Positions 11,896-32,553 of a stretch of DNA of 64,000 nt are shown here, piece by piece. Origin of the DNA: Clostridium sp. (lineage in GTDB: Bacteria > Bacillota > Clostridia > Lachnospirales > Lachnospiraceae); the NCBI GenBank assembly GCA_023664605.1, contig JAMPFF010000002.1, positions 124,001 through 188,000 on the forward strand, read 5' to 3'. Under the pieces are notes generated by a model. The model did no database searches. It was given only the letters and a program-made list of their open reading frames with translations, and was not told the DNA's origin. Made by a program: the position numbers and the translations under genes. How positions within the stretch are numbered: position 1 is the stretch's first letter; every line of letters starts with the position of its first letter.

Positions 11896-11912
11896 ATTAT
11901 TTATGTTCCCTT

Positions 11913-12950: not shown

Positions 12951-12951
12951 T

Positions 12952-14256: not shown

Positions 14257-14287
14257 TACTAATCCTCCGTATTTTCTCTAAATTAAC

Positions 14288-16105: not shown

Positions 16106-16132
16106 TTTAGTTGTCTCCCGTTTTGTATCTTT

Positions 16133-17032
16133 TTATTTAAGAATACTTTTTAATTCCTGTAAAATAGTGTCTTTTGAAGAATAGGTTGGATGCCATCCAA
16201 AACAATTTTCATAATTTTTCGTATAATAATTCAATTTTTTCCCGGATGGAATTTTTAGTTCTGCCTCATTATCATATAAAACTTTCATCTGAAATTCTTC
16301 TTGACACAGAGTTAGCAGCGCCGTCTTCGAGATCGGCTTTGTACTATATAAATCCATGGAAGTATTTGTTCCCTCTGCCATTATAATTTTTAAAACAGCA
16401 GCGGATAAGTCTTGCGGTGAAATATAGTCCCTTACTATCTCTTCTTTATGAGTAACAAATGGTCTTCCATTTTTTAATGCGTATACGATATCTGCCATTA
16501 AGTAATGTTCTGTTTCTTTCAAAAATCTGCTGAAAAATGCAAAGAGCCTTAAGTCAACAATAAATAAATCAGAAAATGCTCGATGTTTTAATTCTGAATT
16601 TAATTTGATAATTGTAGTATGATAATTTAAAGTCAATGCATTCGGTGGTATTTTAGTTTCTTTCTTTCCGGCTGCTTCTTGAAATTCATTGCCATAAACA
16701 GCGCCACTGCTAAAATTGATATATTTACAATTTGGATGTTCATGCAGATATTTTATAATTAAGTTATCATAGTATTCAGTCAACTCAAATAAATATTTCA
16801 CTTCGTTTGAACCGATTCCTATACAGTTGACAACAGCATCACAGTCAGATTGTAAAAAATAATCTATCTTATGAATTTGTACATTTCCCATGATATTATT
16901 TTTTTGCAGAAAGTATTTCATTTTATCCGTATTACGCACAAAGCACTCCAGTTTAATATGGTTTTCTTTGGCTAAAAAGAAGACTAGTGTACTGCCTATA
17001 TGTCCTGTAGCGCCCAAAATTGCAACCGTCAC
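16133..17032 (-). CDS. NAD-dependent epimerase/dehydratase-like protein (atypical SDR)
   Basis: A 299-residue extended-SDR-type protein with the NAD-binding GATGHIGSTL at its N-terminus, FSSGAVYG in the serine region and VRDYISPQDLSAAVL in the C-terminal part. The usual Y-x-x-x-K is not obvious: the nearest pattern, NYHTTIIK, has wider spacing, so catalysis may be altered. The start is a GTG with GGAGGTAA upstream. It lies between two radical SAM genes in the minus-strand operon and probably modifies a nucleotide-sugar. Its specificity cannot be inferred. Confidence 0.78.
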   Translation of the reverse strand: MTVAILGATGHIGSTLVFFLAKENHIKLECFVRNTDKMKYFLQKNNIMGNVQIHKIDYFLQSDCDAVVNCIGIGSNEVKYLFELTEYYDNLIIKYLHEHPNCKYINFSSGAVYGNEFQEAAGKKETKIPPNALTLNYHTTIIKLNSELKHRAFSDLFIVDLRLFAFFSRFLKETEHYLMADIVYALKNGRPFVTHKEEIVRDYISPQDLSAAVLKIIMAEGTNTSMDLYSTKPISKTALLTLCQEEFQMKVLYDNEAELKIPSGKKLNYYTKNYENCFGWHPTYSSKDTILQELKSILK

Positions 17033-17062
17033 TCTTTACCTCCACTGTTTTCTTGTAGAATA

Positions 17063-18079
17063 TTACATGGTATAATACTGCTTTAATCTTTGCGCAGAAT
17101 TGGATATATCATCTTCTGCAAATAGTCGATAATTCATAATATTGCAATTTTTACAGACCTCGCCCACTGTTTCTATTCCTTCCAACATCTGTCTTCTAAA
17201 TCCGGTAAACATCTTATTATTCCATATTTGCGGGAGAGAATTTGTATTACAATCCCCTAAAATAGCCGGATATGGAATAGAGTGACATCCTACAACTTTT
17301 CCATCCGGATTTATCTGTACAGTATAAAATGGCTGCGGACATATATGACTCTTCCCTACAGCAACGCCAAACTGTGTTAAATTTCCTTTTTCTTTTAACT
17401 CTTGATTGATATCGACTCCCGGAAAGATAGGAACGGCTGTTTCAATGCCAATAGTATCTGTAATGTCGCCAAATAAATGGAAATACTGTTGTTCATCATC
17501 TTTATCGCTTAATGCAATATCCACAATTTTTAAATACATTTGCGTGTGCTGTTTGTGCTCATAAAAATACTGAATATTAGACACAAACTCGTTAAAGTTT
17601 ATGTCTATTCCCGATACTTCTTTATAGCTTTGCGCCGTAATACCCTGTAAAGATATCACAAGACGATCCAAACCTGCGTCTATTATGTAATCCGATATTT
17701 CGGGCGTCAATAAAGAAGCATTCGTAATGATTTCTATTCGCTCTGCAATATTAGAATGTTTAGCGTATTTTATCATACGTGCAATATCCTTATGGAGAAG
17801 CGGCTCACCCATACCTACAAATCGAAAAGTTTTGATTTGTTCCGGAAATTCTTGCATACCGTCCACATATTTTTGAAATGATGTATACTCCATTACTGTT
17901 TTATCTGTCACAAAGCATCTATCGTTCAAAGGAATAGACATATGGCAATATTTGCATTTAAAATTACAGGCGTATATAGGAAATATCTGAACCACAAAGG
18001 GAGTGGATAATGGTAATTTATCTTCTAATCGCTGCCGCGTTCCACCCGGCGGTTCCTGCTTAATTAATTTTGCATTCAT
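17063..18079 (-). CDS. Radical SAM/SPASM protein
   Basis: A 338-residue radical SAM enzyme closely similar to 11913-12950. The 4Fe-4S motif CNFKCKYC lies near residue 38, then FVGMGEPLLHK and EIITNAS. C-terminal SPASM cysteines are in HICPQPFY, VVGCHS and CKNC. The N-terminus contains the shared KLPLSTPF element that recurs as IPL-T-P in the paralogs at 11913, 33703 and 34755. Such enzymes open SAM to a deoxyadenosyl radical; SPASM members modify peptides or sugars. It is followed closely by the SDR gene. No precursor-peptide gene is adjacent, which favours a sugar substrate. Confidence 0.84.
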   Translation of the reverse strand: MNAKLIKQEPPGGTRQRLEDKLPLSTPFVVQIFPIYACNFKCKYCHMSIPLNDRCFVTDKTVMEYTSFQKYVDGMQEFPEQIKTFRFVGMGEPLLHKDIARMIKYAKHSNIAERIEIITNASLLTPEISDYIIDAGLDRLVISLQGITAQSYKEVSGIDINFNEFVSNIQYFYEHKQHTQMYLKIVDIALSDKDDEQQYFHLFGDITDTIGIETAVPIFPGVDINQELKEKGNLTQFGVAVGKSHICPQPFYTVQINPDGKVVGCHSIPYPAILGDCNTNSLPQIWNNKMFTGFRRQMLEGIETVGEVCKNCNIMNYRLFAEDDISNSAQRLKQYYTM

Positions 18080-18086
18080 ATTTTTT

Positions 18087-19169
18087 CTACCTTGATAAAT
18101 GATTATAAAATGGGTCTACTGTTATGTCTTCTTTTGAAAATACCTCATTATATGGAACCGGAAGTGGTTTATCATAAACTTTCGCTTCAATATAATTTTT
18201 AATGAAATCCATATCTTCCGCAATTAAACAAGTATTACGTTTTTCTCCAAAGTGTTTAATGCCAAGACCTCTATCAATAATCTGCTGTAATGGCTCTTCA
18301 AAAATATTTCCTATAGAAACATGAATATATGGGCAGGGTAGAACATCACCATATTGTGTTACAGAGAACATACCTTTTACTGCAATACACCCCATATCTA
18401 ATCCATATCCCGGAGTTAAATGGGAGAAAACGTTATATTTTTTTTCAAGCTCATTAAAATATGCCAAGTCATTTTTGTCTATTAAACAATCATATTGTCT
18501 TTCCCAAGCCCCGACTGGTTTTGCAAAAGATACAAAGACACCAATACCTTTTTTGTTAAAAAATTCTATAAACTGGAGAAATTCTTCTGAATGCAGGCGT
18601 TGTTTCGTTACTACTGTCTGTACAAAAATATTCATGCCCAAATCAATACAATCATCAATTACCTCTAATGTTCTGGCATGAGAACCTTCTTTTCTCCGAA
18701 ACTCATCATGTTCTTTGGCGTTTAATCCATCAATGGATAATTGAATTCTATCTATGCCAATTTCCATCATATGTTTAATTTTTTCTCTCGTTAAAAGCCA
18801 ACCATTGGAATCGCAATTAATATAAAATTTTTGAGGATTTATCGCTTCAACAATTTGGTCCAAATCTTGAAATGTGGTAGGTTCTCCTCCTGTAATAACA
18901 AATCTTGCCAATCCCATCTTGTCAGCCTGTTCGGCTAAATTCCTTACATCCTCCACTGTCATTTTTCTATCCGGATTTTTACCTTGAAATCTTTTAATGG
19001 AACAATGTATACATTGGAAATTACACTGGTAATTATACTGCATCTGTATAATGCCAATAGATTCTCCGCGTCTTATTTTTTCATCCAATTTTAAAATTTT
19101 CTCATACACATAAGGTTTCTTTTCTTTTAAATAGTTTCGATTTGCATTTTCCTTTTCTGTTAATCCCAT
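18087..19169 (-). CDS. Radical SAM protein
   Basis: A 360-residue radical SAM protein with the cluster motif CNFQCIHC around residue 50, ITGGEPTTF for SAM binding, and a C-terminal set of cysteines (MGCIAVKG, LPCPYIHVSIGNIFEEPLQQII) resembling a reduced SPASM/twitch region. It is distinct from the IPL-T-P subgroup at 17063 and 11913. It lies 2 bp after the Nudix gene and 7 bp before the next radical SAM gene, so expression is coupled. Its role is probably an unusual sugar modification, by context only. Confidence 0.82.
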   Translation of the reverse strand: MGLTEKENANRNYLKEKKPYVYEKILKLDEKIRRGESIGIIQMQYNYQCNFQCIHCSIKRFQGKNPDRKMTVEDVRNLAEQADKMGLARFVITGGEPTTFQDLDQIVEAINPQKFYINCDSNGWLLTREKIKHMMEIGIDRIQLSIDGLNAKEHDEFRRKEGSHARTLEVIDDCIDLGMNIFVQTVVTKQRLHSEEFLQFIEFFNKKGIGVFVSFAKPVGAWERQYDCLIDKNDLAYFNELEKKYNVFSHLTPGYGLDMGCIAVKGMFSVTQYGDVLPCPYIHVSIGNIFEEPLQQIIDRGLGIKHFGEKRNTCLIAEDMDFIKNYIEAKVYDKPLPVPYNEVFSKEDITVDPFYNHLSR

Positions 19170-19171
19170 TT

Positions 19172-19684
19172 TTATCTCTCCTTGAAATAGTTTTTATATG
19201 CATAATGCACGTTAATCATATCTTCCGGGAAAAAATCATGCCATGCAAGATAACCGACTTCGCCCTTTTTGCATGTTTGATGTTCTAAAAAAAGTTCTCC
19301 GTCAATTTCGCATTCATATACTAATGTAATAAAATGTGATCTCGCAGTATTATCAGATATTAATTCCATGATTTCAATAGGTTTGTCACTGTGTTTTACA
19401 CGGCAGCCTAACTCCTTTAGTGCAACTTGCTCTATTCGATGGTTTGCGCTTTCCTTATATCGTATAATACCCCCCGGCACATGCCAGCCTGTTCCACAAT
19501 ATTCATCATTTCGCCATGATAACAGAATTCGCCCATCTTTATCCCGCACTAATAAATCTACATTTATCATTGGCGTAATCTGTGTTGCAAACAAAAATAT
19601 TTCCTCCGGAAGTCCTTTTGTTGGATCATCAATATATTCTGCAATTTTTGCTAACATATATTTCAAATTATTTTCTCTGTCCAT
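19172..19684 (-). CDS. Nudix hydrolase, GDP-mannose mannosyl hydrolase-like
   Basis: A 170-residue Nudix protein. The box reads GGIIRYKESANHRIEQ then VALKELG, which fits G-x5-E-x7 but lacks the usual R-E before the final E-x-G. This reduced box is characteristic of GDP-mannose mannosyl hydrolases (Gmm/NudD), which cleave GDP-sugars to GDP and sugar. WHVPGG precedes the box, also typical of that group. In this operon it could trim or regulate a GDP-hexose pool. GDP-mannose specificity is inferred from motif shape only. Confidence 0.8.
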   Translation of the reverse strand: MDRENNLKYMLAKIAEYIDDPTKGLPEEIFLFATQITPMINVDLLVRDKDGRILLSWRNDEYCGTGWHVPGGIIRYKESANHRIEQVALKELGCRVKHSDKPIEIMELISDNTARSHFITLVYECEIDGELFLEHQTCKKGEVGYLAWHDFFPEDMINVHYAYKNYFKER

Positions 19685-19713
19685 TTTTTATCCCTTATAT
19701 TTTTGCTTGTATT

Positions 19714-21243
19714 TTACTCGCTTCCATTAATCGCCATCATCATTTCTTTTGTAAATTTTACTTTTGTCTTTCTTGGCTTCACAAATTCGTTTTCTTCTTC
19801 ATAATAAGAATCATTCAAATAATGCGTTGATGAAATTTCTTCAAAAATACATCCGGTTTCTGTAGAAAAACTATGACTATCCCGACGTTCTATAGTCACA
19901 ATATCTCCTTTATGCAGCATTTTCGCATTTCCATTTATAATGATTGATAATGTTCCATGCAATATGACAAAAGTCTCTTCTTTTTGTATATGATAATGTG
20001 TTGGATGCTTTTGCCCCGGAAGCAGCACTAATATCTTTTTACAATATTCACGATTCACACAATCTATCATGGCAACACCTGTCTCATAAAATTTTTCAAT
20101 TCCATAATGATGAGATATCTCGCAACTGCTTCCAACGGGTACTACGACCTTGCTTTCCCTTAGCAGCTCTATTAATTTCTTAATAATGTTCAAAACATCA
20201 TTGGATATATCATGCATTAATACATCTTTCTTCATAATAGGCATGTCAGCTTTAAGCGTATTACTTATAATTTGAATCTTATTATATTTTGATAAATCAC
20301 TTGCCACCAACTGTCCTTGTTGACATGGAAATGCCAAATAAATATCCTCTTTATGTAAAATTTGATTTTCAGATAATGTATTCTTAACAAAAACCCCTCT
20401 TTTTAACGCAGCTAAATCCATCTTTTCTTTTTCTGTTGGATTGTACCTGGTTCCCGTAATTCCACATATTTCATAAGCTTCTCTAGCTGCCAAAAGCCAT
20501 TTGCGCACCTGTTTGGGATTGGCTGAATATTCATTTAGAACTATTTCATCCGTAGGTACGCCGACATGTTTTTCAAAAATCTCCGCACCTTTCGCGACTG
20601 CTATTTTGATTGGCAGCATATTATCCGGGTCCTCGTGTGTAGAAAATCCAATTCTGATATATGGAAATTCTGCTTGATAATAGTCAATTTGATTCATCTG
20701 CAGATTTTCATTTTTTGTTGGATATTCTGCAATACAATGCATAAGAGAAAAATCGATATTTCTATTATTAAAAAATCGAACTACATTACATACTGTATTG
20801 ATATCGCTTCCGGCTCCGGACGCAATCACCGGCATTTCCTTTTCAGCTATTTTTTCAAGAAGCGGCCAATCATTAAAAGAACAACTGGCTATTTTAATAT
20901 AATCGTATTTTTGTTCTGCTATCAAATCCACGGACGCCTCATCAAATGGTGTACAAATCGCCCCAAAACGATTGTTTTTTACCTCTGCCAACAATTCCTC
21001 GAATTGATATCTTTGAAGCTTGGTATCTTGAAATCTTTTTACATTTTTGATATCAAAACGATTTTTATAATTCGGATGTATAAAGGTATCTAAATCACGG
21101 TATTGAAACTTAAAAGCAAAATCAAATTCGTCAAACTCATCGCATATTTTACGAATCTCTTTAATGATAAGTCTGCCATGTTCTACTTTACCCTGATGGT
21201 TATTTGCCATTTCAAATATAAATAAAGGTTTTCTTGCTTTCAT
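19714..21243 (-). CDS. NeuB-family synthase fused to a C-terminal cupin domain
   Basis: A 509-residue fusion. Residues 1-260 are a NeuB-type (nonulosonate/sialic acid synthase) TIM barrel: IFEMANNHQGKVEHG, FAFKFQ, ICTPFDEAS, IKIASCS, ASGAG and FEKHVGV. A SAF-like segment follows (KRGVFVKNTLSENQILHKEDIYLAFPC). From about residue 410 a cupin follows: HPTHYHIQKEETFVILHGT, then GDIVTIERRDSHSF, with His and Glu metal ligands visible. NeuB enzymes condense phosphoenolpyruvate with an N-acyl hexosamine to make 9-carbon sugars. The cupin may isomerise or sense the sugar. It is distinct from the conventional NeuB at 29224-30222. Confidence 0.88.
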   Translation of the reverse strand: MKARKPLFIFEMANNHQGKVEHGRLIIKEIRKICDEFDEFDFAFKFQYRDLDTFIHPNYKNRFDIKNVKRFQDTKLQRYQFEELLAEVKNNRFGAICTPFDEASVDLIAEQKYDYIKIASCSFNDWPLLEKIAEKEMPVIASGAGSDINTVCNVVRFFNNRNIDFSLMHCIAEYPTKNENLQMNQIDYYQAEFPYIRIGFSTHEDPDNMLPIKIAVAKGAEIFEKHVGVPTDEIVLNEYSANPKQVRKWLLAAREAYEICGITGTRYNPTEKEKMDLAALKRGVFVKNTLSENQILHKEDIYLAFPCQQGQLVASDLSKYNKIQIISNTLKADMPIMKKDVLMHDISNDVLNIIKKLIELLRESKVVVPVGSSCEISHHYGIEKFYETGVAMIDCVNREYCKKILVLLPGQKHPTHYHIQKEETFVILHGTLSIIINGNAKMLHKGDIVTIERRDSHSFSTETGCIFEEISSTHYLNDSYYEEENEFVKPRKTKVKFTKEMMMAINGSE

Positions 21244-21255
21244 TAACTTGTTCTC

Positions 21256-23064
21256 CTATAGCCTCGCATATATTTGTTCCATTGTCTGCTCTGATAAAAA
21301 AGGAAAAGGATTTTCTAACAATGCTGATACTCTTTTCCCTGATTCATCTAAATAGGATATACATTTAGGAATTTCATCATAAGTTATGGAACCAATAAAT
21401 TCACAAATAACCGGTCCATCATGTTTCAAGGCACGTTCTATTTTACTTTCTATTTCATCATCATCGATAATACAATAATACGGAATTCCATATGCAGCAG
21501 ATATTTTCTCTAAATCAGGCATTGTAACACCGCTTTCTGCGTCGCTTCCTACATGAAAACCGTTAAAATTGCGATTCTGCATCGTTGCGATTGCCGCATA
21601 TCCTGCATTGTGGAAAATGAACATTTTAGCATTTATTTTATAATGAACAACAGTTTGCAATTCCTGAATATTTAACTGTAAACTGCCATCACCCTCCAGC
21701 ATAATAATCCTTTGTCCTTTACCAGAAAACCAACTTCCAACTACGGATGGTAAAGCAAAGCCCATAGAACCAAAGCCCATGGATGATATAACCCGTTGTC
21801 CTTTTTTATGTTTGAATGCCATATGTCCTGCTGTATTACATCTGCTTGTGGATGACACGACGATTATGTCTTTTTCATCACAATAATCAGATAATTTCAT
21901 AGACATCCGATATAAATCCACCATTTCAGTTAAAACTTCCTGCTTCTCGTTTAATAAAGGATATTCTCTTTTTATGTCCTGACAAAATTTAATCCAGTTT
22001 GAATAATCAGGTATAGGCTTTTGGATAATCTGCAATTTCAAATTCTCTAAAAAGAATTTCACATCACATACCGCGGCTAAGATATCAGTCATTGCAAGTT
22101 TTTTAATTTCATTATCATCTATGTCAACTACTATTTTTTTCGCCTGATATGCAAAATGTTCTTCATTAAAAGCCGTAATCATATTATCCATTCGACTTCC
22201 TAACACTATCAACAAATCTGCTCCTTGAAGAATGATGTTTGAATAGCGGTTAGCCTGTAATCCCGGACTTCCGAAAAAATATGGATCATCATAATCCATA
22301 ATCTCCAATGCTCTCCATGTTGACAGCACAGGTATTTTCAATATGCTCTGGACTTCTTCAAATAAGTTCTGTGAGTCAGATGCAATCACCCCATGTCCAA
22401 CAAGAAACAGCGGCCTCTTTGACTTCTGCATGAAATCATAAGTTGTATTAATTACTTTCCTTATTTCTGGTTTATCAGGATGCAGTGCAGCTAAAACATC
22501 TGTTTCCTGTAATTCGTTTGTATCAAATGATAATAAAATATCCGGATTAATTTGTGCATTTTGAATATCAAGTGGAATATCTATCCATACCGGTCCTTTT
22601 CTTCCGTGTGTAGCAAGGTATATTGCTTTTTCCATATGATATTTTATCTCTTCTGCTTTCAATACGGTTACAGCATATTTTGTTATCGGTTTTGCCATGG
22701 AAATGATGTCATTTTCCTGCGCTCCAAATTGACGCACATTTCTTAAGGAAGCAAAGTCCGTCATTTTAACTTGTCCGGATATAAACAGCATGGGCGTAGA
22801 GTCAACATACGCTGCGCCTGCCGCCGTTAATGCATTAGTGCCGCCGGGACCGGTAGTCACCATACATACTCCTAATTCATTTTTCTCCATGGCATATGCC
22901 TGGGCTGCGATTCCCGCTGCCTGCTCATGATGACAGCAGACATAATGAATATCACTATGTCCCAGTGCATCAACCAAGTACATAATTCCACCGCCGCTTA
23001 ACATAAAAACGGATTGGACTCTATTTTTTTCAAGAATGCTCATTACATAATCCGCTAATCGCAT
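21256..23064 (-). CDS. Thiamine-diphosphate-dependent enzyme, acetolactate synthase-like
   Basis: A ~602-residue TPP enzyme of the acetolactate synthase/benzoylformate decarboxylase superfamily and first gene of the minus-strand operon. It has the catalytic glutamate in CCHHEQAAG, TTGPGGTNA, and the TPP site EGDGSLQLN ending HNAG. The frame extends to a TTG at 23181 inside the inverted repeat, but that is implausible. I chose ATG 23064 because AGGA lies 8 bases upstream and the protein then aligns with the paralog at 25876 (MR-x-ADY/I). ATG 23073 and 23094 are alternatives. Transcription probably comes from the promoter at 23202-23230. It may make or cleave an alpha-keto sugar precursor. Confidence 0.86.
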   Translation of the reverse strand: MRLADYVMSILEKNRVQSVFMLSGGGIMYLVDALGHSDIHYVCCHHEQAAGIAAQAYAMEKNELGVCMVTTGPGGTNALTAAGAAYVDSTPMLFISGQVKMTDFASLRNVRQFGAQENDIISMAKPITKYAVTVLKAEEIKYHMEKAIYLATHGRKGPVWIDIPLDIQNAQINPDILLSFDTNELQETDVLAALHPDKPEIRKVINTTYDFMQKSKRPLFLVGHGVIASDSQNLFEEVQSILKIPVLSTWRALEIMDYDDPYFFGSPGLQANRYSNIILQGADLLIVLGSRMDNMITAFNEEHFAYQAKKIVVDIDDNEIKKLAMTDILAAVCDVKFFLENLKLQIIQKPIPDYSNWIKFCQDIKREYPLLNEKQEVLTEMVDLYRMSMKLSDYCDEKDIIVVSSTSRCNTAGHMAFKHKKGQRVISSMGFGSMGFALPSVVGSWFSGKGQRIIMLEGDGSLQLNIQELQTVVHYKINAKMFIFHNAGYAAIATMQNRNFNGFHVGSDAESGVTMPDLEKISAAYGIPYYCIIDDDEIESKIERALKHDGPVICEFIGSITYDEIPKCISYLDESGKRVSALLENPFPFLSEQTMEQIYARL

Positions 23065-23155
23065 TTTTGTCATCCTAACTATGTTATTTGTCATGTTTTT
23101 CTTTCTCATTGGTATCATGGATTGATACAATAGAATACAGATAAAATGAACAATA

Positions 23156-23181
23156 CTTTTTCTAACAAATGTTATCTTCAA
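23156..23181 (-). repeat. Left inverted repeat of invertible element (26 bp)
   Basis: A perfect 26-bp match, in inverted orientation, to 23870-23895. Its core contains the dyad TAACATTTGTTA when read on the minus strand, the kind of site a tyrosine recombinase binds. It lies in the leader of the minus-strand operon, between promoter and first gene. Confidence 0.92.
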
Positions 23182-23201
23182 ATTTATAAACTATATTCTT
23201 T

Positions 23202-23230
23202 AGTATATTACACTTTTTTCAATATTACAA
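23202..23230 (-). promoter_or_regulatory. Promoter inside the invertible segment, facing left operon
   Basis: On the minus strand, TTGTAA (23230-23225) and TATACT (23207-23202) are separated by exactly 17 bp, matching a sigma-A promoter with 4/6 and 5/6 consensus bases. It lies after the recombinase stop codon and before the left repeat, so it transcribes outward into the minus-strand operon. No terminator lies between the recombinase and this promoter, so recombinase transcripts may also read through. Confidence 0.65.
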
Positions 23231-23272
23231 GAAAACATTTTTATATCTGGTAATTCATGTATTTAGAGATTG

Positions 23273-23854
23273 TTATAATACGATATTCTTGTATACCTCG
23301 TCTTTATCATCCTGCTCTATAGATAGATATCTTTTCGTAACTTCCATAGAGGAATGATTATAAATAGACATAATAATAGCCGGAGAAACGCCTTGTTTCC
23401 ACGCATGATAGCCGAATGTTTTTCGTAGGGAATGACAGCTTAAGTTGCCCTCATAGCCTAATTCATGGCATGCGTCTTTAATAATGACATAAGCGCGGTT
23501 TCTGCCGATATGGCTGTTTTGCCCAACTCTGCTTTTAAAAATATATTCCGTCGGCTGCATTCTGCCTTCTAAAAACTTTTTGAGTTCATTTAGGGATTCC
23601 AGGCACTGTTGGTTTAAGTATATATTGGCAATTTTGCCGGTTTTTTGTTCAGGAATGATAATATGTTCCTTAAAACGCTGCAATTCAAAATTCCATATAT
23701 CCTGCCACTGTAGTTGTAATAAATCACTGATACGCAAAGCTGTATTGATGCCAAGCGTCACTAATACATAATTTCTGATTTCCCCCTTATCGTAAAAGAA
23801 TTGCCTTAATTTATGGATTTCATCAATTTTTTTAATCGGTTGTGTTGTACTCAT
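23273..23854 (-). CDS. Tyrosine recombinase (DNA invertase, FimB/FimE-size)
   Basis: A 193-residue tyrosine recombinase consisting only of the catalytic domain, the size of FimB/FimE-type invertases. Visible catalytic residues are Arg in ALRISDLL, Lys in EQKTGK, His and Arg in CHSLRK, His in IYNHSSM and the nucleophile in KRYLSIEQ. It is enclosed by perfect 26-bp inverted repeats. Its ribosome site (AGGAAAGG) is inside the segment, but only 15 bp separate its start codon from the right repeat, so its promoter must be outside. A TATAGT on the minus strand just beyond the right repeat is a candidate. It most likely inverts its own segment. Confidence 0.92.
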   Translation of the reverse strand: MSTTQPIKKIDEIHKLRQFFYDKGEIRNYVLVTLGINTALRISDLLQLQWQDIWNFELQRFKEHIIIPEQKTGKIANIYLNQQCLESLNELKKFLEGRMQPTEYIFKSRVGQNSHIGRNRAYVIIKDACHELGYEGNLSCHSLRKTFGYHAWKQGVSPAIIMSIYNHSSMEVTKRYLSIEQDDKDEVYKNIVL

Positions 23855-23869
23855 ATTCCTGTCCTTTCC

Positions 23870-23895
23870 TTGAAGATAACATTTGTTAGAAAAAG
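23870..23895 (+). repeat. Right inverted repeat of invertible element (26 bp)
   Basis: Perfect inverted copy of 23156-23181; the plus-strand sequence begins TTGAAGATAACATTTG. The match ends abruptly on both sides (23869 and 23896 differ from their partners), as expected for a recombination site rather than a decayed duplication. Confidence 0.92.
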
Positions 23896-23931
23896 CACTA
23901 TACAGTAATGCCCCAAGAGGTTAAATAGAGC

Positions 23932-24819
23932 ATGAAAATTTTAGTAACAGGCGGTTCCGGATTTGTCGGCAGGAATGTAAAGGAATATTTGACACAAAGG
24001 GGATACGATATCTATGCGCCTGCCAGTACGGAATTGGACTGTATAAATGAAAATAAGGTAAAAGAGCATCTGCAGACACATTATTATGACGTTGTCCTCC
24101 ATTTTGCCGTTTGTGGCGATAAAAGTGACTGTTCTAAGGATGGCAGTAAAATACTGGAATACAATTTGCGAATATTCAGTAATTTTGCAAAATATTCTGA
24201 TTTATATGGCAGGATGATTTATACCGGTTCAGGAGCCGAGTATGACAAAAGATACCCCATACAGATGGTAACGGAGCCGGAATTACAGACCCGTACACTG
24301 CCGGTAGACCAGTATGGTTTGATGAAATATATTGCTACTCAACAAATAGAATCCAGTAATAATATATATAATTTACGCCTCTTTGGTATATTTGGGAAGT
24401 ATGAAGATTGGAAAATAAAGTATATTTCCAATTTATGTTGTAAGTCATTAAAGGGATTGCCATTATCATTAAGACAAAACTGTTATTTTGATTATTTGTG
24501 GATAGATGATTTTTGCCATATGCTGGAGAAATTTCTCAGGTTGGATAAGCCGCAATATCATGTATATAATGCCGTGCGGGGAGAAAAAATTGATTTGCTT
24601 AGTCTGGCTCATATCGTCAATGAAGTTGCAGATGATAAACGGGAGATTTTCATATGCCGTGAAGGTTATGCTAACGAGTATACGGCAAATAATGCAAGAA
24701 TTATGAAAGAGATACCGGATATTGTATATACGGATATAAAAGATTCTGTCAGCCAATTATATGAATGGTACAAAGCGCATCAGAATGAGATAGACACATA
24801 TTCGTTGATTTATGGGTGA
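23932..24819 (+). CDS. NAD-dependent epimerase/dehydratase (extended SDR)
   Basis: A 295-residue nucleotide-sugar epimerase or reductase and first gene of the plus-strand operon. It has VTGGSGFVGRNVKEYL at the N-terminus, YTGSGAEYDKR and the catalytic YGLMK. It is paralogous to 9082-9957, including the NIYNLRLFGIFGKYEDW and FDYLWIDDFCH segments. It is too short and lacks the extra helices of LegB-type 4,6-dehydratases, so it is not the missing first step of legionaminate synthesis. It starts 36 bp after the right inverted repeat, so it would receive the switch promoter after inversion. Confidence 0.83.
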   Translation: MKILVTGGSGFVGRNVKEYLTQRGYDIYAPASTELDCINENKVKEHLQTHYYDVVLHFAVCGDKSDCSKDGSKILEYNLRIFSNFAKYSDLYGRMIYTGSGAEYDKRYPIQMVTEPELQTRTLPVDQYGLMKYIATQQIESSNNIYNLRLFGIFGKYEDWKIKYISNLCCKSLKGLPLSLRQNCYFDYLWIDDFCHMLEKFLRLDKPQYHVYNAVRGEKIDLLSLAHIVNEVADDKREIFICREGYANEYTANNARIMKEIPDIVYTDIKDSVSQLYEWYKAHQNEIDTYSLIYG

Positions 24820-24823
24820 GGGT

Positions 24824-25864
24824 ATGCAGTTAGAAGATATATTAATTGAGGAAAAGTCGAATATCAGGACTGCGATAGAACGGCTTGAGAAAGTCCGGTG
24901 TAAAGTTATCTATGTCATGAATAATGGTAAACTGGTAGCTTCCATATCTGACGGAGATGTCAGAAGATATGCGTTGCAGGATGGAAATGTTAATCTGCCT
25001 GTTAAGTATATTTCCAATTATAATCCTACATTTTTGATACGTTATGAAAAAGAAAAACTGGATGAGATGTTTGGCGCATCGGAAGTATATTCCATTCCGA
25101 TTGTTAATTACAATCATGAAGTAGTGGAGGTTATATTCAGGAACGGGAGACGGATTAGGCGTAAACAGGCATTGGATTGCCCTGTGGTAATGATGGCAGG
25201 GGGGAAAGGAACCAGATTATATCCATATACGCAGATTCTTCCGAAAGCATTAATACCCGTAGGGGAATTGCCGATTTCAGAGCGTATTATTAATAGTTTT
25301 CTTGATTTTGGCTGTGAACAGTTCTATTTGATAGTAAATCATAAGAAAAATATGATACATGCATATTTTGATAATCTCCCAAAGGCATATGACTTGCATT
25401 ATATCGAGGAGGACAGGCCATTAGGAACGGGCGGCGGGTTATATTTACTGGATGGAGAAATCCAAAGAGAATTTTTCCTGGTCAACTGCGATATTATTAT
25501 CGATGCTGATTATAGTGAAATTTATAATTATCATAGAAAAGAAAATAATTTTATTACCATAGTAGCCGCAAAATATCGGCATGTAGTGCCTTACGGCGTA
25601 GTGTCGTGCGATGAGAGAAATGACTATACGGAAATCCATGAAAAACCCCAGTTAGATTATTTGATTAATACGGGAATGTATATTGTAAGTGAAAAATTAT
25701 TAAAAATAATGCCGCACAATACGGAAATAGCGTTTCCTGATTTGATAGATTCCTTTAAACAGGATGGAAAAAAGATAGGGGTCTATGTTGTAGAAGAATC
25801 TGCATACATGGACATGGGGCAGTTAGAAGAACTGGAAAAAATGAAAAAGAAACTAAATCTTTAA
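24824..25864 (+). CDS. CBS-domain sugar nucleotidyltransferase, LegF/PtmE-like
   Basis: A ~346-residue protein with an N-terminal CBS pair (residues 1-110: KVIYVMNNGKLVASISDGDVRRYA) followed by a nucleotidyltransferase domain. The latter shows VVMMAGGKGTRLYPYTQILPKALIPVGELPI, EEDRPLGTGGGLYLL and FFLVNCDIIIDADY. This architecture matches LegF/PtmE, which makes GDP-glucosamine, the first activated sugar of the GDP-route to legionaminic acid in Campylobacter. ATG 24824 is preferred (a GGGTGAGGG lies upstream); ATG 24812 would overlap the preceding gene and adds 4 residues. It is followed by the TPP enzyme 11 bp downstream. Confidence 0.85.
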   Translation: MQLEDILIEEKSNIRTAIERLEKVRCKVIYVMNNGKLVASISDGDVRRYALQDGNVNLPVKYISNYNPTFLIRYEKEKLDEMFGASEVYSIPIVNYNHEVVEVIFRNGRRIRRKQALDCPVVMMAGGKGTRLYPYTQILPKALIPVGELPISERIINSFLDFGCEQFYLIVNHKKNMIHAYFDNLPKAYDLHYIEEDRPLGTGGGLYLLDGEIQREFFLVNCDIIIDADYSEIYNYHRKENNFITIVAAKYRHVVPYGVVSCDERNDYTEIHEKPQLDYLINTGMYIVSEKLLKIMPHNTEIAFPDLIDSFKQDGKKIGVYVVEESAYMDMGQLEELEKMKKKLNL

Positions 25865-25875
25865 GGAAAATAGAA

Positions 25876-27663
25876 ATGAGAAAAAGAGTAGCGGACATTA
25901 TCATGGATACGTTGATAGAATATGGTATTACCGATTGTTTTGCCGTTGTAGGCGGCGGAGCGATGCACTTGGATAATGCCTTATTGGTCTGTGAAAAAAT
26001 GAATAAATATTTCAATCATCATGAACAGGCATGTGCTATGGCGGCGGAAGCATACGCCAGATACAGCGGCAATATGGCGGCGGTCTGTGTAACATCCGGA
26101 CCGGGTGCAACGAATACTTTAACGGGAGTAATGGGGGCTTGGCAGGACAGTCTTCCAATGATAGTGCTTTCCGGACAAGTGCGTTATGAAATATCTGTTC
26201 CGCAATCAGGATTAAAACTTCGATATCGCGGTATCCAGGAGTTTGAAATTATTCCTGTTGTAAAAAATATGACCAAATATGCAGTTATGCTTACAGACCC
26301 GTTGGCAGTAAAAATGGAAATCAGTAAGGCAATTAAAATTGCCATATCGGGAAGACGGGGACCGGTCTGGATAGACGTGCCGCAGGATATTCAGAATGCT
26401 ATGGTAGAAGAAAGTGAATTGTACAGTGAGGAAGAAAATGTATATGCGCCTCCTGTGATGAAAAGGGATGATATATTAGCGATAATCGAGGTGTTACGGG
26501 AAGCAAAAAGACCATGTATTCTGGCTGGTTCAGGGATAATCAGCAGTAATGTAAGGGAACTCTTTGAAGAACTGGTAAATAAAATGGGGATACCCGTAAT
26601 AGGCGGTTCCTGGGTAGCGGATAATTTCTATACGGAGCATCCTTTATATTATGGTAATTCGGGGAATGTAGGACCGAGAACAGGAAATTTCATATTACAG
26701 AATGCAGATGTTATCTTGACATTGGGTAATAGCCTGGGATTTCGTCAGACCGGGTTTAACCTGGATGGATTTGCGCCTGACGCCAGAATTATTATGGTGG
26801 ATGTGGATAGGGAAGAGAGTAAAAAGCCGGGTCTTCATATTTATAAATTCATTCATGCTGATTTAAAAGATATGATAGCAGGAATTTTGCAGGAGGACTG
26901 CGCAGTACAGACACCACAGGACTGGCTTGCTTATTGCAATATGTTAAAAACAAGATTTACTCCTTTTGAAGCGATTCAAAATATTGATATGAATGAAAGG
27001 GTATGCGCCTATTATTTTTGGAAAGTATTTCAAAAATATGAAGAAAAAGACAGCATACTGGCATTGGGGAATAATACGGCAAATACAGCAAAATTGCAGG
27101 TAGGCGTTCAATATGCCGGGCAGAGGGCTTTGACTAACTATACATGCGGTTCCATGGGCTATGATGTGCCTGCTGCGATTGGTGCGGCGGTTGCATCGGG
27201 CAGAAAAGTATACTGTATTACCGGAGACGGAAGCGTTATGATGAATCTTCAGGAATTACAGACTATTGTACAAAATGATTTGCCGATTCATCTGGTGATT
27301 TTTTCAAATGATGGGTATGGAGCAATCAGGCAGACCAGTAAGAATTTTTTTAATGGAGCTTATATAGGCTGTACGCCTGATACCGGAGTAAGCTTTCCGG
27401 ATTTTAGAAAAGTGGCTGATACTTTTGGATTTGAGTATGATAAATGCAGCACGAATGAACAGTTGGAAGAGGCGGTGAAAAGACTGGTTCACAGCAGTAA
27501 GAGGGTTTTGCTTGAGATTGAGCAAAAATTGGATGACCCGGTAACGCCCAAAGTAATGTCAAGATTGGATGAGAACGGGAAGATGCTAACGCCGGCGCTG
27601 CAGGATATGTATCCATTTCTAGCGGAAACAGAGTATAAAGAGTTAATGATTAAGGATAAGTAA
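25876..27663 (+). CDS. Thiamine-diphosphate-dependent enzyme, acetolactate synthase-like
   Basis: A 595-residue TPP enzyme, paralog of 21256-23064. The active-site Glu is in NHHEQACAM, with TSGPGATNTL, and the TPP-binding motif is GDGSVMMN ending SNDGYG. The order LegF, TPP enzyme, NeuD-like acyltransferase, formyltransferase, NeuB, NeuC, LegC suggests it builds or modifies a carbon skeleton or N-acyl group of an unusual nonulosonate. An ordinary amino-acid-pathway acetolactate synthase would normally be beside ilv genes, which are absent. The reaction is not known. Confidence 0.88.
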   Translation: MRKRVADIIMDTLIEYGITDCFAVVGGGAMHLDNALLVCEKMNKYFNHHEQACAMAAEAYARYSGNMAAVCVTSGPGATNTLTGVMGAWQDSLPMIVLSGQVRYEISVPQSGLKLRYRGIQEFEIIPVVKNMTKYAVMLTDPLAVKMEISKAIKIAISGRRGPVWIDVPQDIQNAMVEESELYSEEENVYAPPVMKRDDILAIIEVLREAKRPCILAGSGIISSNVRELFEELVNKMGIPVIGGSWVADNFYTEHPLYYGNSGNVGPRTGNFILQNADVILTLGNSLGFRQTGFNLDGFAPDARIIMVDVDREESKKPGLHIYKFIHADLKDMIAGILQEDCAVQTPQDWLAYCNMLKTRFTPFEAIQNIDMNERVCAYYFWKVFQKYEEKDSILALGNNTANTAKLQVGVQYAGQRALTNYTCGSMGYDVPAAIGAAVASGRKVYCITGDGSVMMNLQELQTIVQNDLPIHLVIFSNDGYGAIRQTSKNFFNGAYIGCTPDTGVSFPDFRKVADTFGFEYDKCSTNEQLEEAVKRLVHSSKRVLLEIEQKLDDPVTPKVMSRLDENGKMLTPALQDMYPFLAETEYKELMIKDK

Positions 27664-28341
27664 ATGGAAAAAATAGTCATTTTAGGAAAAGGCGGACATA
27701 CCGCAAGCATTGTTGATGCTCTGGAAAGTAAAAAAGAATATGAGATAGCGGGATATGTTGTTAATGATGAACCGGGGACATCGGATGAAAATTATCCTGT
27801 GCTTGGAGATGATGAGGAACTTGAGAGGATATTTCAAAGCGGAATTAGAAATGCGGCAATGGGCGTAGGCTATTTAGGAAAGTCGGATATAAGGGAAAGA
27901 TTATGGATAAAACTAAAGAAAATAGGGTATAACTTTCCGGTTATCTATGATTCTACAGCAATTATAGCACATGACACTTTCATAGGAGAAGGCAGTTTTA
28001 TTGGCAAAGGCGCTATTATTAATACAAATACCCAAATAGGGAAAATGTGTATTATTAATACAGGAGCAATTATTGAACATGATTGTTATATAGAAGATTT
28101 CTCGCATATATCGGTTGGAAGCGTTTTATGTGGCAATGTATATGTTGGACAGGCTTCCTTTATCGGGGCGAATGCAACAATTATTCAGGGAAAAAAGGTT
28201 GGCAATAGATGTATTGTAGCTGCCGGCGCCACAATTAGAAAAAATATGGAGGATGCCCATATGGCGTGGAGTAATGAAAAAGTAAGGAGTATTTCCGGGG
28301 GGGGGTATAAGCTGATATCCGAGGAGGTGTATGCTGCATGA
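27664..28341 (+). CDS. NeuD/PglD-like sugar O- or N-acyltransferase
   Basis: A 225-residue protein with an N-terminal sugar-nucleotide-binding half (VILGKGGHTASIVDAL, EIAGYVVNDE) and a C-terminal left-handed beta-helix of hexapeptide repeats (FIGEGSFIGKGAIINTNTQIG, CIINTGAIIEHDCYIEDF). This is the PglD/NeuD/WbbJ pattern: acetyl or other acyl transfer from acyl-CoA to an amino sugar or sialic-type sugar. The start directly abuts the TPP-enzyme stop. The SISGGGYK segment near the C-terminus is encoded by a G9 run (28297-28305), so slippage would alter the last dozen residues and remove the ATGA overlap with the next gene. Confidence 0.85.
   Translation: MEKIVILGKGGHTASIVDALESKKEYEIAGYVVNDEPGTSDENYPVLGDDEELERIFQSGIRNAAMGVGYLGKSDIRERLWIKLKKIGYNFPVIYDSTAIIAHDTFIGEGSFIGKGAIINTNTQIGKMCIINTGAIIEHDCYIEDFSHISVGSVLCGNVYVGQASFIGANATIIQGKKVGNRCIVAAGATIRKNMEDAHMAWSNEKVRSISGGGYKLISEEVYAA
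28297..28305 (+). repeat. Homopolymeric G9 tract in acyltransferase gene
   Basis: Nine G encoding the glycine triplet of SISGGGYK close to the 3' end of the NeuD/PglD-like gene. The frame is intact. Confidence 0.9.
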
Positions 28342-29231
28342 AAATCGGATACTTTGCAGATGGTCCCTGGGCGCATAGAGCTTTTGATAAAATTATTTTG
28401 GATGATTCCATAGAAGTTCAGTTTATAACACTCAGATATCATTCACAGGACGAAGAATTAGTTGGGAGGGCAAAAGAAAATAACATACCTTTGGAATTAA
28501 GCGAAAATGTAAATTCCAAAGAGTTTATAGATCGAATCAAACGTTATAATGCGGACTTGTTTGTTTCTATGTCATTTAATCAAATATTGAAACTGGAAAT
28601 AATAAATTTGCCCAAATATAAAACGATTAACTGTCATGCCGGGAAATTGCCTTTTTACAGAGGAAGAAATATATTGAACTGGGCATTGATTAATGATGAA
28701 AAAGAGTTTGGAGTGACTGTTCATTATGTGGATGAGGGAATTGATACGGGAGATATTCTTTTACAGGAAGTTTATCCCATAACGGATGAAGATGATTATG
28801 GTACATTACTTGAGCGGGCTTATGATGGCTGTGCGGATGTGTTGTATAGGGCGATTAAGATAATTCAGAATGATGCGGTGCAGCGTATCAGACAATGTGA
28901 TATCGACCCTGTAGGAATGTACTGTGGCGGGCGCGGGTGTGGGGATGAAATTATTGACTGGAATAAAACCAGCAGAGAAATTTTCAATTTTATCAGAGCA
29001 TTAAGCATACCGGGACCGATGGCGACGTCGTGGATTAATGGTAAAAAGATTGGTATTAACAAATCCAGAATGGTGAATGGGGCGCATAAGTATATTAATA
29101 ATGTCGGACAGGTTATTGGAAAATCGGAGGATGGTTTTTTTATTAAGACGGGAGATACGATATTGGAGATTATAGAGTATACATATGATGGCAAAATCAG
29201 AATAGGAGACAGACTGAAAAATTATGAATAA
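28338..29231 (+). CDS. Sugar N-formyltransferase (methionyl-tRNA formyltransferase-like)
   Basis: A 297-residue formyl-tetrahydrofolate-dependent transferase. The catalytic Asn and His are in INCHAGKLPFYRG, and the third active-site residue in VDEGIDTGDIL. A C-terminal beta-rich domain follows (GGRGCGDEIIDWNKTS), as in ArnA- and VioF-type sugar formyltransferases. Its start overlaps the acyltransferase stop (ATGA). It probably formylates an amino group of a nucleotide-sugar or nonulosonate, giving an N-formyl decoration. It is unlikely to be the housekeeping Fmt because it is embedded in the glycan operon. It overlaps the NeuB gene by 8 bp. Confidence 0.86.
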   Translation: MKIGYFADGPWAHRAFDKIILDDSIEVQFITLRYHSQDEELVGRAKENNIPLELSENVNSKEFIDRIKRYNADLFVSMSFNQILKLEIINLPKYKTINCHAGKLPFYRGRNILNWALINDEKEFGVTVHYVDEGIDTGDILLQEVYPITDEDDYGTLLERAYDGCADVLYRAIKIIQNDAVQRIRQCDIDPVGMYCGGRGCGDEIIDWNKTSREIFNFIRALSIPGPMATSWINGKKIGINKSRMVNGAHKYINNVGQVIGKSEDGFFIKTGDTILEIIEYTYDGKIRIGDRLKNYE

Positions 29232-30222
29232 AGTATTTGTTATTGCGGAAGCCGGAGTGAATCATAATGGAGATATTGATATAGCTAAAAAATTAGTGGA
29301 CGAGGCAGCTTCGGCGGGGGCGGATGCAGTAAAGTTCCAGACATTTAAAGCGGAGAATCTTGTGTGCCGGAATGCGGCAAAAGCGGCGTATCAAATGGAG
29401 ACGACAGATATGAAAGAATCTCAACTTGAGATGTTGAAAAGACTGGAATTAACACCGGATATGCACGAACAGTTAATGAAGTATTGTTTGCAGAAAAAAA
29501 TCACATTCCTCTCCACGCCCTTTGATATAGACAGCCTGCATTATTTGATGGAATGCGGACTTGATATGATAAAAATACCGTCCGGGGAAATAACGAATTA
29601 TCCTTTTTTGAGAGAAGCCGGAAAAACAGGAAAGAAAATAATCCTTTCCAGCGGCATGAGCAATTTAAACGAAGTAAAAGCGGCTGTCAAAGTGTTGACG
29701 GATAATGGAAGTGGAGAAATAACGGTATTACATTGTAATACAGAATATCCAACGCCTTATAAGGATGTTAATTTAAACGCTATGTTGACATTAAAAAATG
29801 AATTAGGCGTCAAAGTGGGATATTCAGACCATACGCTGGGCATTGAAATTCCTATTGCAGCGGCGGCATTAGGCGCAACGGTCATAGAAAAACATTTTAC
29901 GTTGGATAAAAATATGGACGGACCCGACCATAAAGCGAGTCTTGAACCGAATGAACTGCATGTAATGGTGAAAGCAGTTAGAAATATTGAATTGGCATTG
30001 GGAAGCGGAGAGAAAAAACCGTCAGAATCAGAACAAAGAAATATGGACATTGCCCGGAAAAGTATTGTTGCGAGATGTGATATAAAAGCCGGTGAAACAT
30101 TTACCGAAAATAACCTGACAACAAAACGTCCGGGAAGTGGTATCTCACCGATGCAGTGGAATGAAGTGATGAACCGGAAAGCCAAAAGAGATTTTAAGAT
30201 GGATGAGTTGATAGAAATATGA
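29224..30222 (+). CDS. neuB: N-acetylneuraminate/legionaminate synthase (NeuB family)
   Basis: A 332-residue synthase of conventional NeuB/LegI length. The barrel shows VIAEAGVNHNGDIDIAKKLVDEA, AVKFQTFKAE, FLSTPFD, IKIPSGEI, LSSGM, HCNTEYPTPYKDVNLNAM, GYSDHTLGIE and EKHFTLD. A C-terminal SAF antifreeze-like domain follows (SIVARCDIKAGETFTENNLTTKRPGSGISP). It condenses phosphoenolpyruvate with an N-acetylated hexosamine to give a 9-carbon sugar. Beside NeuC/LegG and LegC it most likely makes legionaminic acid or a derivative, but Neu5Ac is not excluded. It overlaps both neighbours by a few bases. Confidence 0.93.
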   Translation: MNKVFVIAEAGVNHNGDIDIAKKLVDEAASAGADAVKFQTFKAENLVCRNAAKAAYQMETTDMKESQLEMLKRLELTPDMHEQLMKYCLQKKITFLSTPFDIDSLHYLMECGLDMIKIPSGEITNYPFLREAGKTGKKIILSSGMSNLNEVKAAVKVLTDNGSGEITVLHCNTEYPTPYKDVNLNAMLTLKNELGVKVGYSDHTLGIEIPIAAAALGATVIEKHFTLDKNMDGPDHKASLEPNELHVMVKAVRNIELALGSGEKKPSESEQRNMDIARKSIVARCDIKAGETFTENNLTTKRPGSGISPMQWNEVMNRKAKRDFKMDELIEI

Positions 30223-31385
30223 AAAAGATTTGCATTGTAACAGGAACACGGGCTGAATATGGTTTGTTAAAGCCTGTTATTGATAAAGTGAATAGTTCTG
30301 AAACTATGGAGCTGCAGTTAGTTGTAACAGGAATGCATCTATCTACGGAATTTGGCTTGACTTATAAGGAAATTGAGGAAGATGGATATCCGATTATCGC
30401 CAAAATTGAAATGCTGTTATCTTCTGATACAACCGTTGGCGTAACAAAATCTATGGGTGTGGCTCTGTTGGGATTTGCCGATTATTATGAGACATACAAA
30501 CCGGATATTGTCGTTATTTTGGGAGATAGATATGAAGCATTGATGGCAGCAACGGCAGCGATGGTTGCCAGAGTGCCGATTGCGCATATTCATGGCGGGG
30601 AGTTGACGGAAGGCGCTATGGATGATGCTATCAGGCATTCCATAACCAAAATGAGTCATCTGCATTTTACCAGTACGGAGGAATACAGGAATAGAGTCAT
30701 ACAGATGGGTGAACAGCCGCAGATGGTATATAATGTTGGCGCTTTAGGCGTGGAAAATATCAAGAAGGCAGCATTGATGGAAAAAGCGGCTCTGGAAAAA
30801 TCAATTCATTTTGTATTTGACACGCCTGTTATTATGGTAACTTATCATCCGGTTACCTTGGAAAATATGTCGTCAGCGGAATCAGAAGAACAATTTGCAA
30901 ATATATTGAAAGTCATTGATAACCATAAGGAATTGAAAGTAATTTTTACAAAAGCCAATTCCGATTTGTATGGCAGAATTATTAATCAGATGATAGATGA
31001 TTTTGTTGATAAAAATGATGATAGATGTATAGCATATACGTCATTAGGACAGCTCCGTTATTTGAGTGCATTGCAGTTTTGTGATGTTGTTATGGGAAAT
31101 TCATCAAGTGGAATTATTGAAGTCCCTTCTTTTGGGATACCTACTGTTAATATAGGAAATCGGCAAAAGAGTAGAGTATGTGCGGATTCGGTAATTCATT
31201 GTGGTAATGAAGCAGGGGATATAGAAATGGCATTAGATAAAGCGATGTCAATCAATTTTAGGGTGTTTATTCAAAATCAGAAGAATCCGTATGAGGGTTC
31301 ACATACTTCAGAAGTAATTTTGAAAGTGATTGATACAGCTTTGGACAAAGGTATTGATGTGAGGAAAAAATTTTATGCAAGATGA
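30219..31385 (+). CDS. neuC: UDP-N-acetylglucosamine 2-epimerase, hydrolysing (NeuC/LegG family)
   Basis: A 388-residue GT-B-fold enzyme with TGTRAEYGLLKPVI at the N-terminus, GDRYEALMAATAAMVARVPIAHIHGGE in the active site and MGNSSSGIIEVPSFGIPTVNIGNRQ at the C-terminus, all typical of NeuC. It inverts C2 and releases the nucleotide from a UDP-HexNAc (UDP-GlcNAc for NeuC; UDP-2,4-diacetamido sugar for LegG). Start and upstream stop overlap as ATGA, and it overlaps the aminotransferase by 11 bp. The presence of LegC next door favours the LegG role. Confidence 0.93.
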   Translation: MKKICIVTGTRAEYGLLKPVIDKVNSSETMELQLVVTGMHLSTEFGLTYKEIEEDGYPIIAKIEMLLSSDTTVGVTKSMGVALLGFADYYETYKPDIVVILGDRYEALMAATAAMVARVPIAHIHGGELTEGAMDDAIRHSITKMSHLHFTSTEEYRNRVIQMGEQPQMVYNVGALGVENIKKAALMEKAALEKSIHFVFDTPVIMVTYHPVTLENMSSAESEEQFANILKVIDNHKELKVIFTKANSDLYGRIINQMIDDFVDKNDDRCIAYTSLGQLRYLSALQFCDVVMGNSSSGIIEVPSFGIPTVNIGNRQKSRVCADSVIHCGNEAGDIEMALDKAMSINFRVFIQNQKNPYEGSHTSEVILKVIDTALDKGIDVRKKFYAR

Positions 31386-32550: not shown

Positions 32551-32553
32551 AAT

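What the first reader, a model, noticed from the sequence alone, without database searches (positions are those of the whole stretch)
23156..23895. Self-contained invertible promoter switch between two divergent glycan operons
A perfect 26-bp inverted repeat (23156-23181 and 23870-23895) encloses a 193-residue tyrosine recombinase and a 17-bp-spaced sigma-A promoter facing left (-35 23230-23225, -10 23207-23202). The left repeat lies in the leader of the minus-strand operon and the right repeat 36 bp before the first gene of the plus-strand operon. Inverting the 688-bp interior would place the same promoter at 23821-23849 facing right. It would thus alternate the two operons rather than turn one on or off. 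Fim/Tsr-type switches are known; a recombinase inside its own invertible unit toggling two nonulosonate operons I do not know as described.
Basis: partly seen in the sequence, partly recalled or inferred. Interest (0 to 1): 0.95.

Follow-up and report, generated by a model that had tools for sequence, protein, structure and literature searches.

The report
Self-flipping promoter cassette between sugar operons
A gut bacterium carries a small DNA cassette that encodes its own flipping enzyme and one outward promoter and sits between two back-to-back sugar-making operons, so each flip should switch which surface sugar is made; a third matching site suggests a third sugar operon might be swapped in.

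Summary
A perfect 26-bp inverted repeat encloses a 193-aa tyrosine recombinase with all six catalytic residues and an outward promoter. It belongs to a Lachnospiraceae family of self-contained cassettes: of 77 recombinase loci with enough flank, 55 have such repeats, against 0 of 77 shuffled pairs. 60 of 79 lie near csrA or flagellin; two such cassettes are in this genome. The window's clade (6 recombinases, support 100/98) sits at sugar operons in all six. All six share a promoter of one strand and spacing; 5 of 6 lie between divergent operons. Both relative orientations occur between species: among 51 flagellin cassettes 47 promoters point away and 4 toward, and a homologous NeuB operon is on the promoter side in two relatives, on the silent side in a third. 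Inversion itself was not observed. New: a third site, 29 kb away and inverted to the left repeat, lies before another NeuB operon, just after a terminator. A 29-kb inversion there would dock operon A instead of B. Verdict: invertible promoter toggle, new variant of a known kind; the three-operon version is unproven.

The parts
23156..23181 (-). Recombination site B (left repeat): promoter-side half AAGATAACATT, 8-nt spacer TGTTAGAA, gene-side half running into the operon B leader
   Evidence: its 19-nt core, up to 1 mismatch, occurs in 2 of 77 genus genomes, both with the cassette. The split into half-sites and spacer is inferred from comparing cassettes.
23870..23895 (+). Recombination site C (right repeat), same core and spacer, 36 bp before the first ATG of operon C
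23273..23854 (-). 193-aa tyrosine recombinase (PF00589), catalytic RKHRHY complete; putative invertase of the cassette
23202..23230 (-). Sigma-A-like promoter TTGTAA-N17-TATACT, pointing out through site B
   Evidence: same place, strand and spacing in 6 of 6 glycan-clade cassettes; combined shuffle p 1.2e-5 over 8 cassettes, this one alone 0.17
23095..23155 (-). Leader of operon B (61 bp), no promoter match in the operon's direction inside it
   Evidence: two weak plus-strand matches (23103-23131, 23109-23136) point inward, into the cassette
23896..23931 (+). Leader of operon C (36 bp, with ribosome-binding-like AAGAGG), no promoter match in the operon's direction inside it
   Evidence: one weak minus-strand match (23924-23897) points inward, toward the recombinase
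10651..23094 (-). Operon B (on the promoter side in the assembled state): TPP enzyme, NeuB-cupin, NUDIX, radical SAM/SPASM, epimerase, B12-radical SAM, pyruvyl-transferase-like genes
   Evidence: operon limits inferred from strand and spacing
23932..37078 (+). Operon C (silent side in the assembled state): epimerase, NTP transferase, TPP enzyme, NeuD, formyltransferase, NeuB, NeuC, LegC, three radical SAM/SPASM, pyruvyl-transferase-like
   Evidence: operon limits inferred
1..9957 (+). Part of operon A that lies in the window; it begins outside at G000:C22:118213 (window coordinate -5787), after solitary site A (C22:118164-118182)
   Evidence: gene-by-gene match to G045 runs to window 1459, further extent inferred from strand

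Best explanation
It is a self-contained, self-inverting promoter cassette. The recombinase inside it recombines the two inverted sites and flips the 688-bp interior with its single outward promoter. In the assembled orientation the promoter reads through site B into operon B; after a flip it would read through site C into operon C. Both operons begin 36-61 bp outside the repeats without a recognisable promoter of their own there, so cells should make one nonulosonate-type sugar pathway or the other. Shown here: repeats, intact recombinase, conserved outward promoter-like sequence, divergent operons, the family, and both relative orientations among species. Inferred: that inversion takes place, that the cassette's own recombinase does it, that the promoter is active, and that the sugars go to flagellin or another surface polymer.
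For: Exact anatomy. Catalytic residues complete and conserved. The two arms of each glycan-clade cassette match at 26/26, 30/30, 31/32, 29/30, 39/40 and 29/32 while arms differ between genomes. The repeat motif tracks the recombinase group: glycan clade 6/6, F2 10/10, F1 38/41, motifs chosen after seeing the arms. Promoter-like sequence in 6/6. Divergent first genes on both sides in 5 of 6. Homologous NeuB-SIS operon on the promoter side in L036 and L040 but on the silent side in L037 (NeuB 66-67%, SIS 46-47%). Sister group: of 51 csrA/flagellin cassettes with usable repeats, SigD-like promoter away from the operon in 47 and toward it in 4, in two internal layouts.
Against: No read-level proof; each genome shows one orientation. 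The window's promoter alone is not significant. The recombinase starts 15 bp after a site, so no promoter for it fits between site and gene. In the window weak inward matches lie in both leaders but they are not conserved, since the flanks differ between species; how it is expressed in both orientations is open. Other weak promoter-like matches exist: a second minus-strand one at 23222-23195, and plus-strand ones inside the recombinase gene upstream of C. L036 has no divergent operon on one side. Opposite orientations are between species, so exchange of flanks is not formally excluded.
Confidence: 0.8

Rival explanations
1. One-sided ON/OFF switch: only operon B is controlled, as the csrA-flagellin relatives seem to be, and operon C has its own promoter.
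For: Most relatives lie at csrA-flagellin operons (60 of 79 loci) and look one-sided; G045/L036 has a gene reading toward the cassette on its other side; weak plus-strand promoter-like matches lie inside the recombinase gene upstream of C.
Against: Operon C starts 36 bp after site C, too short for an independent promoter outside the cassette. In G070 the homologue of operon C again starts at a cassette, divergent from another sugar operon. 5 of 6 glycan-clade cassettes have divergent genes on both sides.
Confidence: 0.15
2. A locked relic: the cassette once inverted but is now fixed, and the repeats are inherited.
For: Only one orientation is seen in this assembly; no reads were available.
Against: Catalytic residues intact; the two arms are 26/26 identical although they differ from those of the nearest relative, which points to continuing exchange or selection.
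Confidence: 0.06
3. An integrase remnant of a mobile element or phage with no regulatory role.
Against: No phage structural or replication family among the neighbours scanned with Pfam (not every gene was scanned; one AbiH defence domain at 38043); relatives sit at surface-structure operons with an outward promoter in a set place; an exact 24-nt stretch of the site occurs in no viral contig.
Confidence: 0.03

Closest known systems
Salmonella Hin/H segment (flagellar phase variation)
   Same: Recombinase gene lies inside its own invertible segment (in print: passage of PMC5903667), with an outward promoter (recalled).
   Different: Hin is a serine recombinase and the H segment drives one operon (recalled); here a tyrosine recombinase and two divergent operons.
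E. coli fim switch with FimB/FimE
   Same: Small tyrosine recombinase flipping a promoter between short repeats (FimB, FimE and invertible promoter: listed in a passage of PMC11868660; sizes recalled). Sub-cutoff matches to two NCBIfam 'tyrosine-type DNA invertase' models.
   Different: FimB/FimE lie outside the switch and it controls one operon (recalled); sequence relation is remote (45 bits against a cut-off of 222).
C. difficile RecV flagellar and cwpV switches; Clostridia inverton group 139 with invertase group 35 (PMC11892184)
   Same: Clostridial invertible elements with tyrosine recombinases (passages). The group 139/35 link counts recombinases that intersect or lie within 5 kb, so some could be of this kind.
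   Different: C. difficile sites are 154-230 bp, intergenic except Cdi7; no passage I saw describes the recombinase inside the unit or a two-operon toggle.
Campylobacter fetus sap inversion (recalled; one search listed only one loosely related paper, not opened)
   Same: One promoter on an invertible segment between oppositely oriented surface-protein genes.
   Different: Recalled as a larger, RecA-linked system for S-layer proteins without such a self-contained cassette.

Membership tests
Tyrosine recombinase superfamily (PF00589) | Pfam match above cut-off and catalytic R-K-H-R-H/W-Y | tested here: met
   86.3 bits against 27.1; R41 K71 H141 R144 H167 Y176. Fold prediction did not run.
NCBIfam tyrosine-type DNA invertase models PRK09870/PRK09871 (FimB/FimE by recall) | Score above the curated cut-off | tested here: not met
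   25.7 bits against 221 and 45.4 against 222: works like one, not a member of those models
Invertible promoter (inverton) | Inverted repeats enclosing a promoter | tested here: met
   promoter by conservation only
Invertible promoter (inverton) | Both orientations found in one population | not testable with these tools
   No reads. Between species both relative orientations were found.
Lachnospiraceae self-contained cassette family (described here) | Recombinase of this family inside its own repeats with an outward promoter | tested here: met
   55 of 77 loci with enough flank have repeats (2 of 79 dropped); tree of 89
Two-sided toggle | Divergent operons beginning close outside both repeats | tested here: met
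   36 and 61 bp here; 5 of 6 glycan-clade cassettes
Three-site switch | Third intact site, inverted to one of the two, before an operon with no clear promoter | tested here: met
   C22:118164-118182, 1 mismatch in 19, 33 of 34 to the site B junction, terminator just upstream; one 9/12 promoter-like match overlaps the terminator
Three-site switch | The A-B inversion occurs | tested here: inconclusive
   G070 has the A-cassette-C order that an A-B inversion would give, but it is another species

The most novel reading that the evidence does not exclude
A three-operon sugar selector. The cassette's promoter is offered on two sides: the right side serves operon C, and the left side serves operon A or B depending on a second, 29-kb inversion between solitary site A (G000:C22:118164) and site B, catalysed by the same 193-aa recombinase. 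The undocked operon is parked convergently behind a strong terminator and stays silent. The genome pairs this with two sister cassettes at flagellin operons, so flagellin type and sugar coat would vary independently.
Probability: 0.33. Interest if true: 0.87.

Novelty: new variant of a known kind. Interest (0 to 1): 0.74.

Why it matters
It would give gut Lachnospiraceae, whose flagellins are prominent immune antigens (recalled), a compact, portable device for alternating surface sugar pathways, and would put flagellin switching and sugar switching under sister recombinases with their own matching sites. The co-variation of recombinase group, site motif and promoter type (SigD-like for flagellin, sigma-A-like for sugars) makes target sites predictable from the recombinase, and the cassette (740 bp with both repeats) is a simple natural two-output switch that can be tested in a laboratory host.

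Tried and rejected
MptE-like flagellin glycosyltransferase in the own genome: PF01973 gave 0 matches (other such families not tested), so a flagellar target for the sugars is not shown. Rfam on 22000-25000 at gathering thresholds: no match. SigD promoter in the window's cassette: best 8 of 11, below the cut of 9 used. A promoter for the recombinase inside flagellin cassettes: in 25 F1 units with at least 50 bp of upstream interior, matches were no better than shuffles (lowest fraction 0.18). Phage origin: remote relatives only, 24-nt site stretch absent from viral contigs. Further sites: with a degenerate 18-nt pattern and 1 mismatch, each of five glycan-clade genomes gave one weak extra match, but reversed-pattern controls gave 0-3 per genome, so I take these as chance; the full matches were three in G000 and two in each of the other four. 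In one search (3 mismatches) the control gave one match. Operon A's upstream in five relatives without this cassette (G022, G023, G038, G056, G058) shows no site.

Rows dropped: 2 of 79 loci for short flank. 11 loci near csrA/flagellin without usable repeats were left out of the orientation counts (L043, L045, L047, L064, L065, L066, L074, L080, L082, L084, L101). L101 counts among the 55 only because two flagellin copies form a long repeat. The 79 loci are the best 80 of 143 confirmed stretches. Literature: (listings) showed no paper on this cassette family or on a two-operon toggle with an internal tyrosine recombinase; Jiang 2019 is not held and most subscription papers are not, so absence in print is not shown.

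Full report
OBSERVATION. The two 26-bp arms match 26 of 26 and enclose 688 bp. The recombinase (193 aa, 23273-23854, minus strand) is a PF00589 protein with R41, K71, H141, R144, H167 and Y176; over 89 recombinases five of these columns are invariant and the tyrosine is present in 88. The promoter is a 9/12 match and not significant alone.

SURROUNDINGS. The window is C22:124001-188000 of G000, a 3.59-Mb genome in 78 contigs. The minus-strand operon (B, 10651-23094) starts with a TPP enzyme and a NeuB-cupin protein and goes on with NUDIX, radical SAM/SPASM, epimerase, B12-radical SAM and pyruvyl-transferase-like genes. The plus-strand operon (C, 23932-37078) has an epimerase, NTP transferase, TPP enzyme, NeuD-type acetyltransferase, formyltransferase, NeuB, NeuC and LegC, then three radical SAM/SPASM genes and a pyruvyl-transferase-like gene; NeuD, NeuB, NeuC and LegC score above NCBIfam cut-offs. 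Both look like nonulosonate-type pathways; C resembles the legionaminic acid route (route recalled).

A FAMILY OF CASSETTES. The own genome has two further recombinases of this type, 50% and 45% identical. Both lie inside their own repeats (24 and 31 nt at 96% and 94%, 729 and 747 nt apart) next to a csrA-flagellin operon, with a SigD-like TAAA-N16-CCGATAT beyond the recombinase's 3' end. In the genus 40 of 77 genomes have at least one relative at E <= 1e-30. A scan of named genomes gave 79 loci (best 80 of 143 confirmed stretches kept); 60 of 79 have csrA or flagellin within 1500 bp. Of 77 with enough flank, 55 have flanking inverted repeats of score 15 or more; 0 of 77 shuffled pairs do. The tree of 89 recombinases puts the window and L036-L040 in one clade, support 100/98.

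PROMOTER AND SITES. In all six glycan-clade cassettes TTG[CT]AATA ... TATA[AC]T, spacing 17, lies on the recombinase's strand 9-22 bp before the downstream repeat. By mononucleotide shuffles the combined p over eight glycan-side cassettes is 1.2e-5, but four single values are not significant (window 0.17, L036 0.12, L115 0.15, L118 0.53). The repeat motif follows the recombinase group: AAGA[AT]AACATT in 6 of 6 of the glycan clade, AACACAAT in 10 of 10 of F2, [GA]CAACA[TCA]T in 38 of 41 of F1 (motifs chosen after inspection). This is expected if each recombinase acts on the sites around it.

BOTH ORIENTATIONS. Among 51 csrA/flagellin cassettes with usable repeats the SigD-like promoter (9 or more of 11; chance about 6% per segment) points away from the operon in 47 (39 F1, 8 F2) and toward it in 4 (L049, L075, L048, L069). 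F1 and F2 carry the promoter on opposite sides of the recombinase, yet both are mostly OFF, so promoter direction, not gene direction, is what is shared. For the sugar cassettes, the operon beginning NeuB-SIS is on the promoter side in L036 and L040 and on the silent side in L037 (66-67% and 46-47% identity for the first two genes). L037's other neighbour, an NTP transferase, is only 39-40% identical to that of operon C, so I do not lean on it.

TWO-SIDED USE. Five of six glycan-clade cassettes (window, L037-L040) have divergent sugar-type genes on both sides; L036 has a gene reading toward the cassette on one side. In G070 (L040) the cassette lies between a homologue of operon C (several genes 68-74%, others 39-60%) and a homologue of operon A's first genes (NeuB 82%, SIS 62%).

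THE THIRD SITE. The 19-nt site core with up to 3 mismatches occurs at three places in the own genome: sites B and C and one more at C22:118164-118182 with one mismatch (reversed-pattern control: one match). With up to 1 mismatch, of 77 genus genomes only G000 (three) and G045 (two) have it, and the controls none. The third site (A) matches the site B junction at 33 of 34 positions, including 10 nt of gene-side leader. Its core starts about 49 bp before the ATG of a NeuB gene, the first of a plus-strand operon (A: NeuB, SIS/HAD, TPP enzyme, class IV aminotransferase, sugar-isomerase-like, SDR genes) that runs into the window. A terminator with a 15-pair stem ends 36 bp before the site (-20.7 kcal/mol, z -5.5). 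No promoter match lies between terminator and site, but one 9/12 match overlaps the terminator itself (L130 12085-12112; 3 found in the region, 2.1 expected), so silence of A is likely, not shown. In G045, the nearest relative, the cassette sits directly before operon A (NeuB 87%; seven genes 69-88%, one gene between them without a match). Sites A and B are inverted to each other and operons A and B face one another between them. An A-B inversion would dock A at the promoter and park B behind the terminator, giving the A-cassette-C order of G070. I could not show that this happens; site A could also be what remains after a cassette was deleted there.

MECHANISM AND DOUBTS. Best reading: inversion by the internal recombinase alternates operons B and C. 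The recombinase begins 14-54 bp after a repeat in the six sugar cassettes, leaving little or no room for its own promoter. In the window weak inward-pointing matches lie in both leaders (23924-23897 minus; 23103-23131 and 23109-23136 plus) and could express it in either orientation, but they are not conserved because the flanks differ. Whether the sugars decorate flagellin is unknown: the genome has nine flagellin-domain matches but no MptE-like match.

KNOWN SYSTEMS. A recombinase inside an invertible segment is known for Hin, and Mpi acts on many sites (passage of PMC5903667). Clostridial invertons linked to tyrosine recombinases are in PMC11892184 (passages). Of PMC11868660 and PMC12355684 I also saw passages only. 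Ten library searches showed no description of this cassette family or of a two- or three-operon toggle; the library lacks most subscription papers.

Noticed in passing
G000:C44:45854-49429 (L002) and G000:C77:1-2684 (L003): Two sister cassettes in the same genome, each with its own recombinase and repeats, upstream of csrA-flagellin operons; in both the SigD-like promoter points away from the flagellin.
   Followed up: yes
L101:1-11436: A relative lies between two divergent flagellin genes, possibly a two-sided flagellin toggle; the repeat found there includes the flagellin 5' regions themselves.
   Followed up: partly
L057:1563-6600: Two recombinases, each beside a csrA-flagellin operon, facing opposite ways relative to their operons.
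   Followed up: partly
window 38043-39719 (-): One ORF joins a dCTP deaminase-like domain and an AbiH (phage abortive infection) domain.
   Followed up: no
window 10299-10646 (+): ParE-family toxin gene (PF05016) at the meeting point of convergent operons A and B; a small ORF before it looks like an antitoxin by eye (no search run).
   Followed up: no
window 1488-2759, 10651-14256, 32554-37078: Radical SAM/SPASM genes and pyruvyl-transferase-like (PF04230) genes recur together in operons B and C, and PF04230 also in A; what they make is unclear.
   Followed up: no
   Followed up: no
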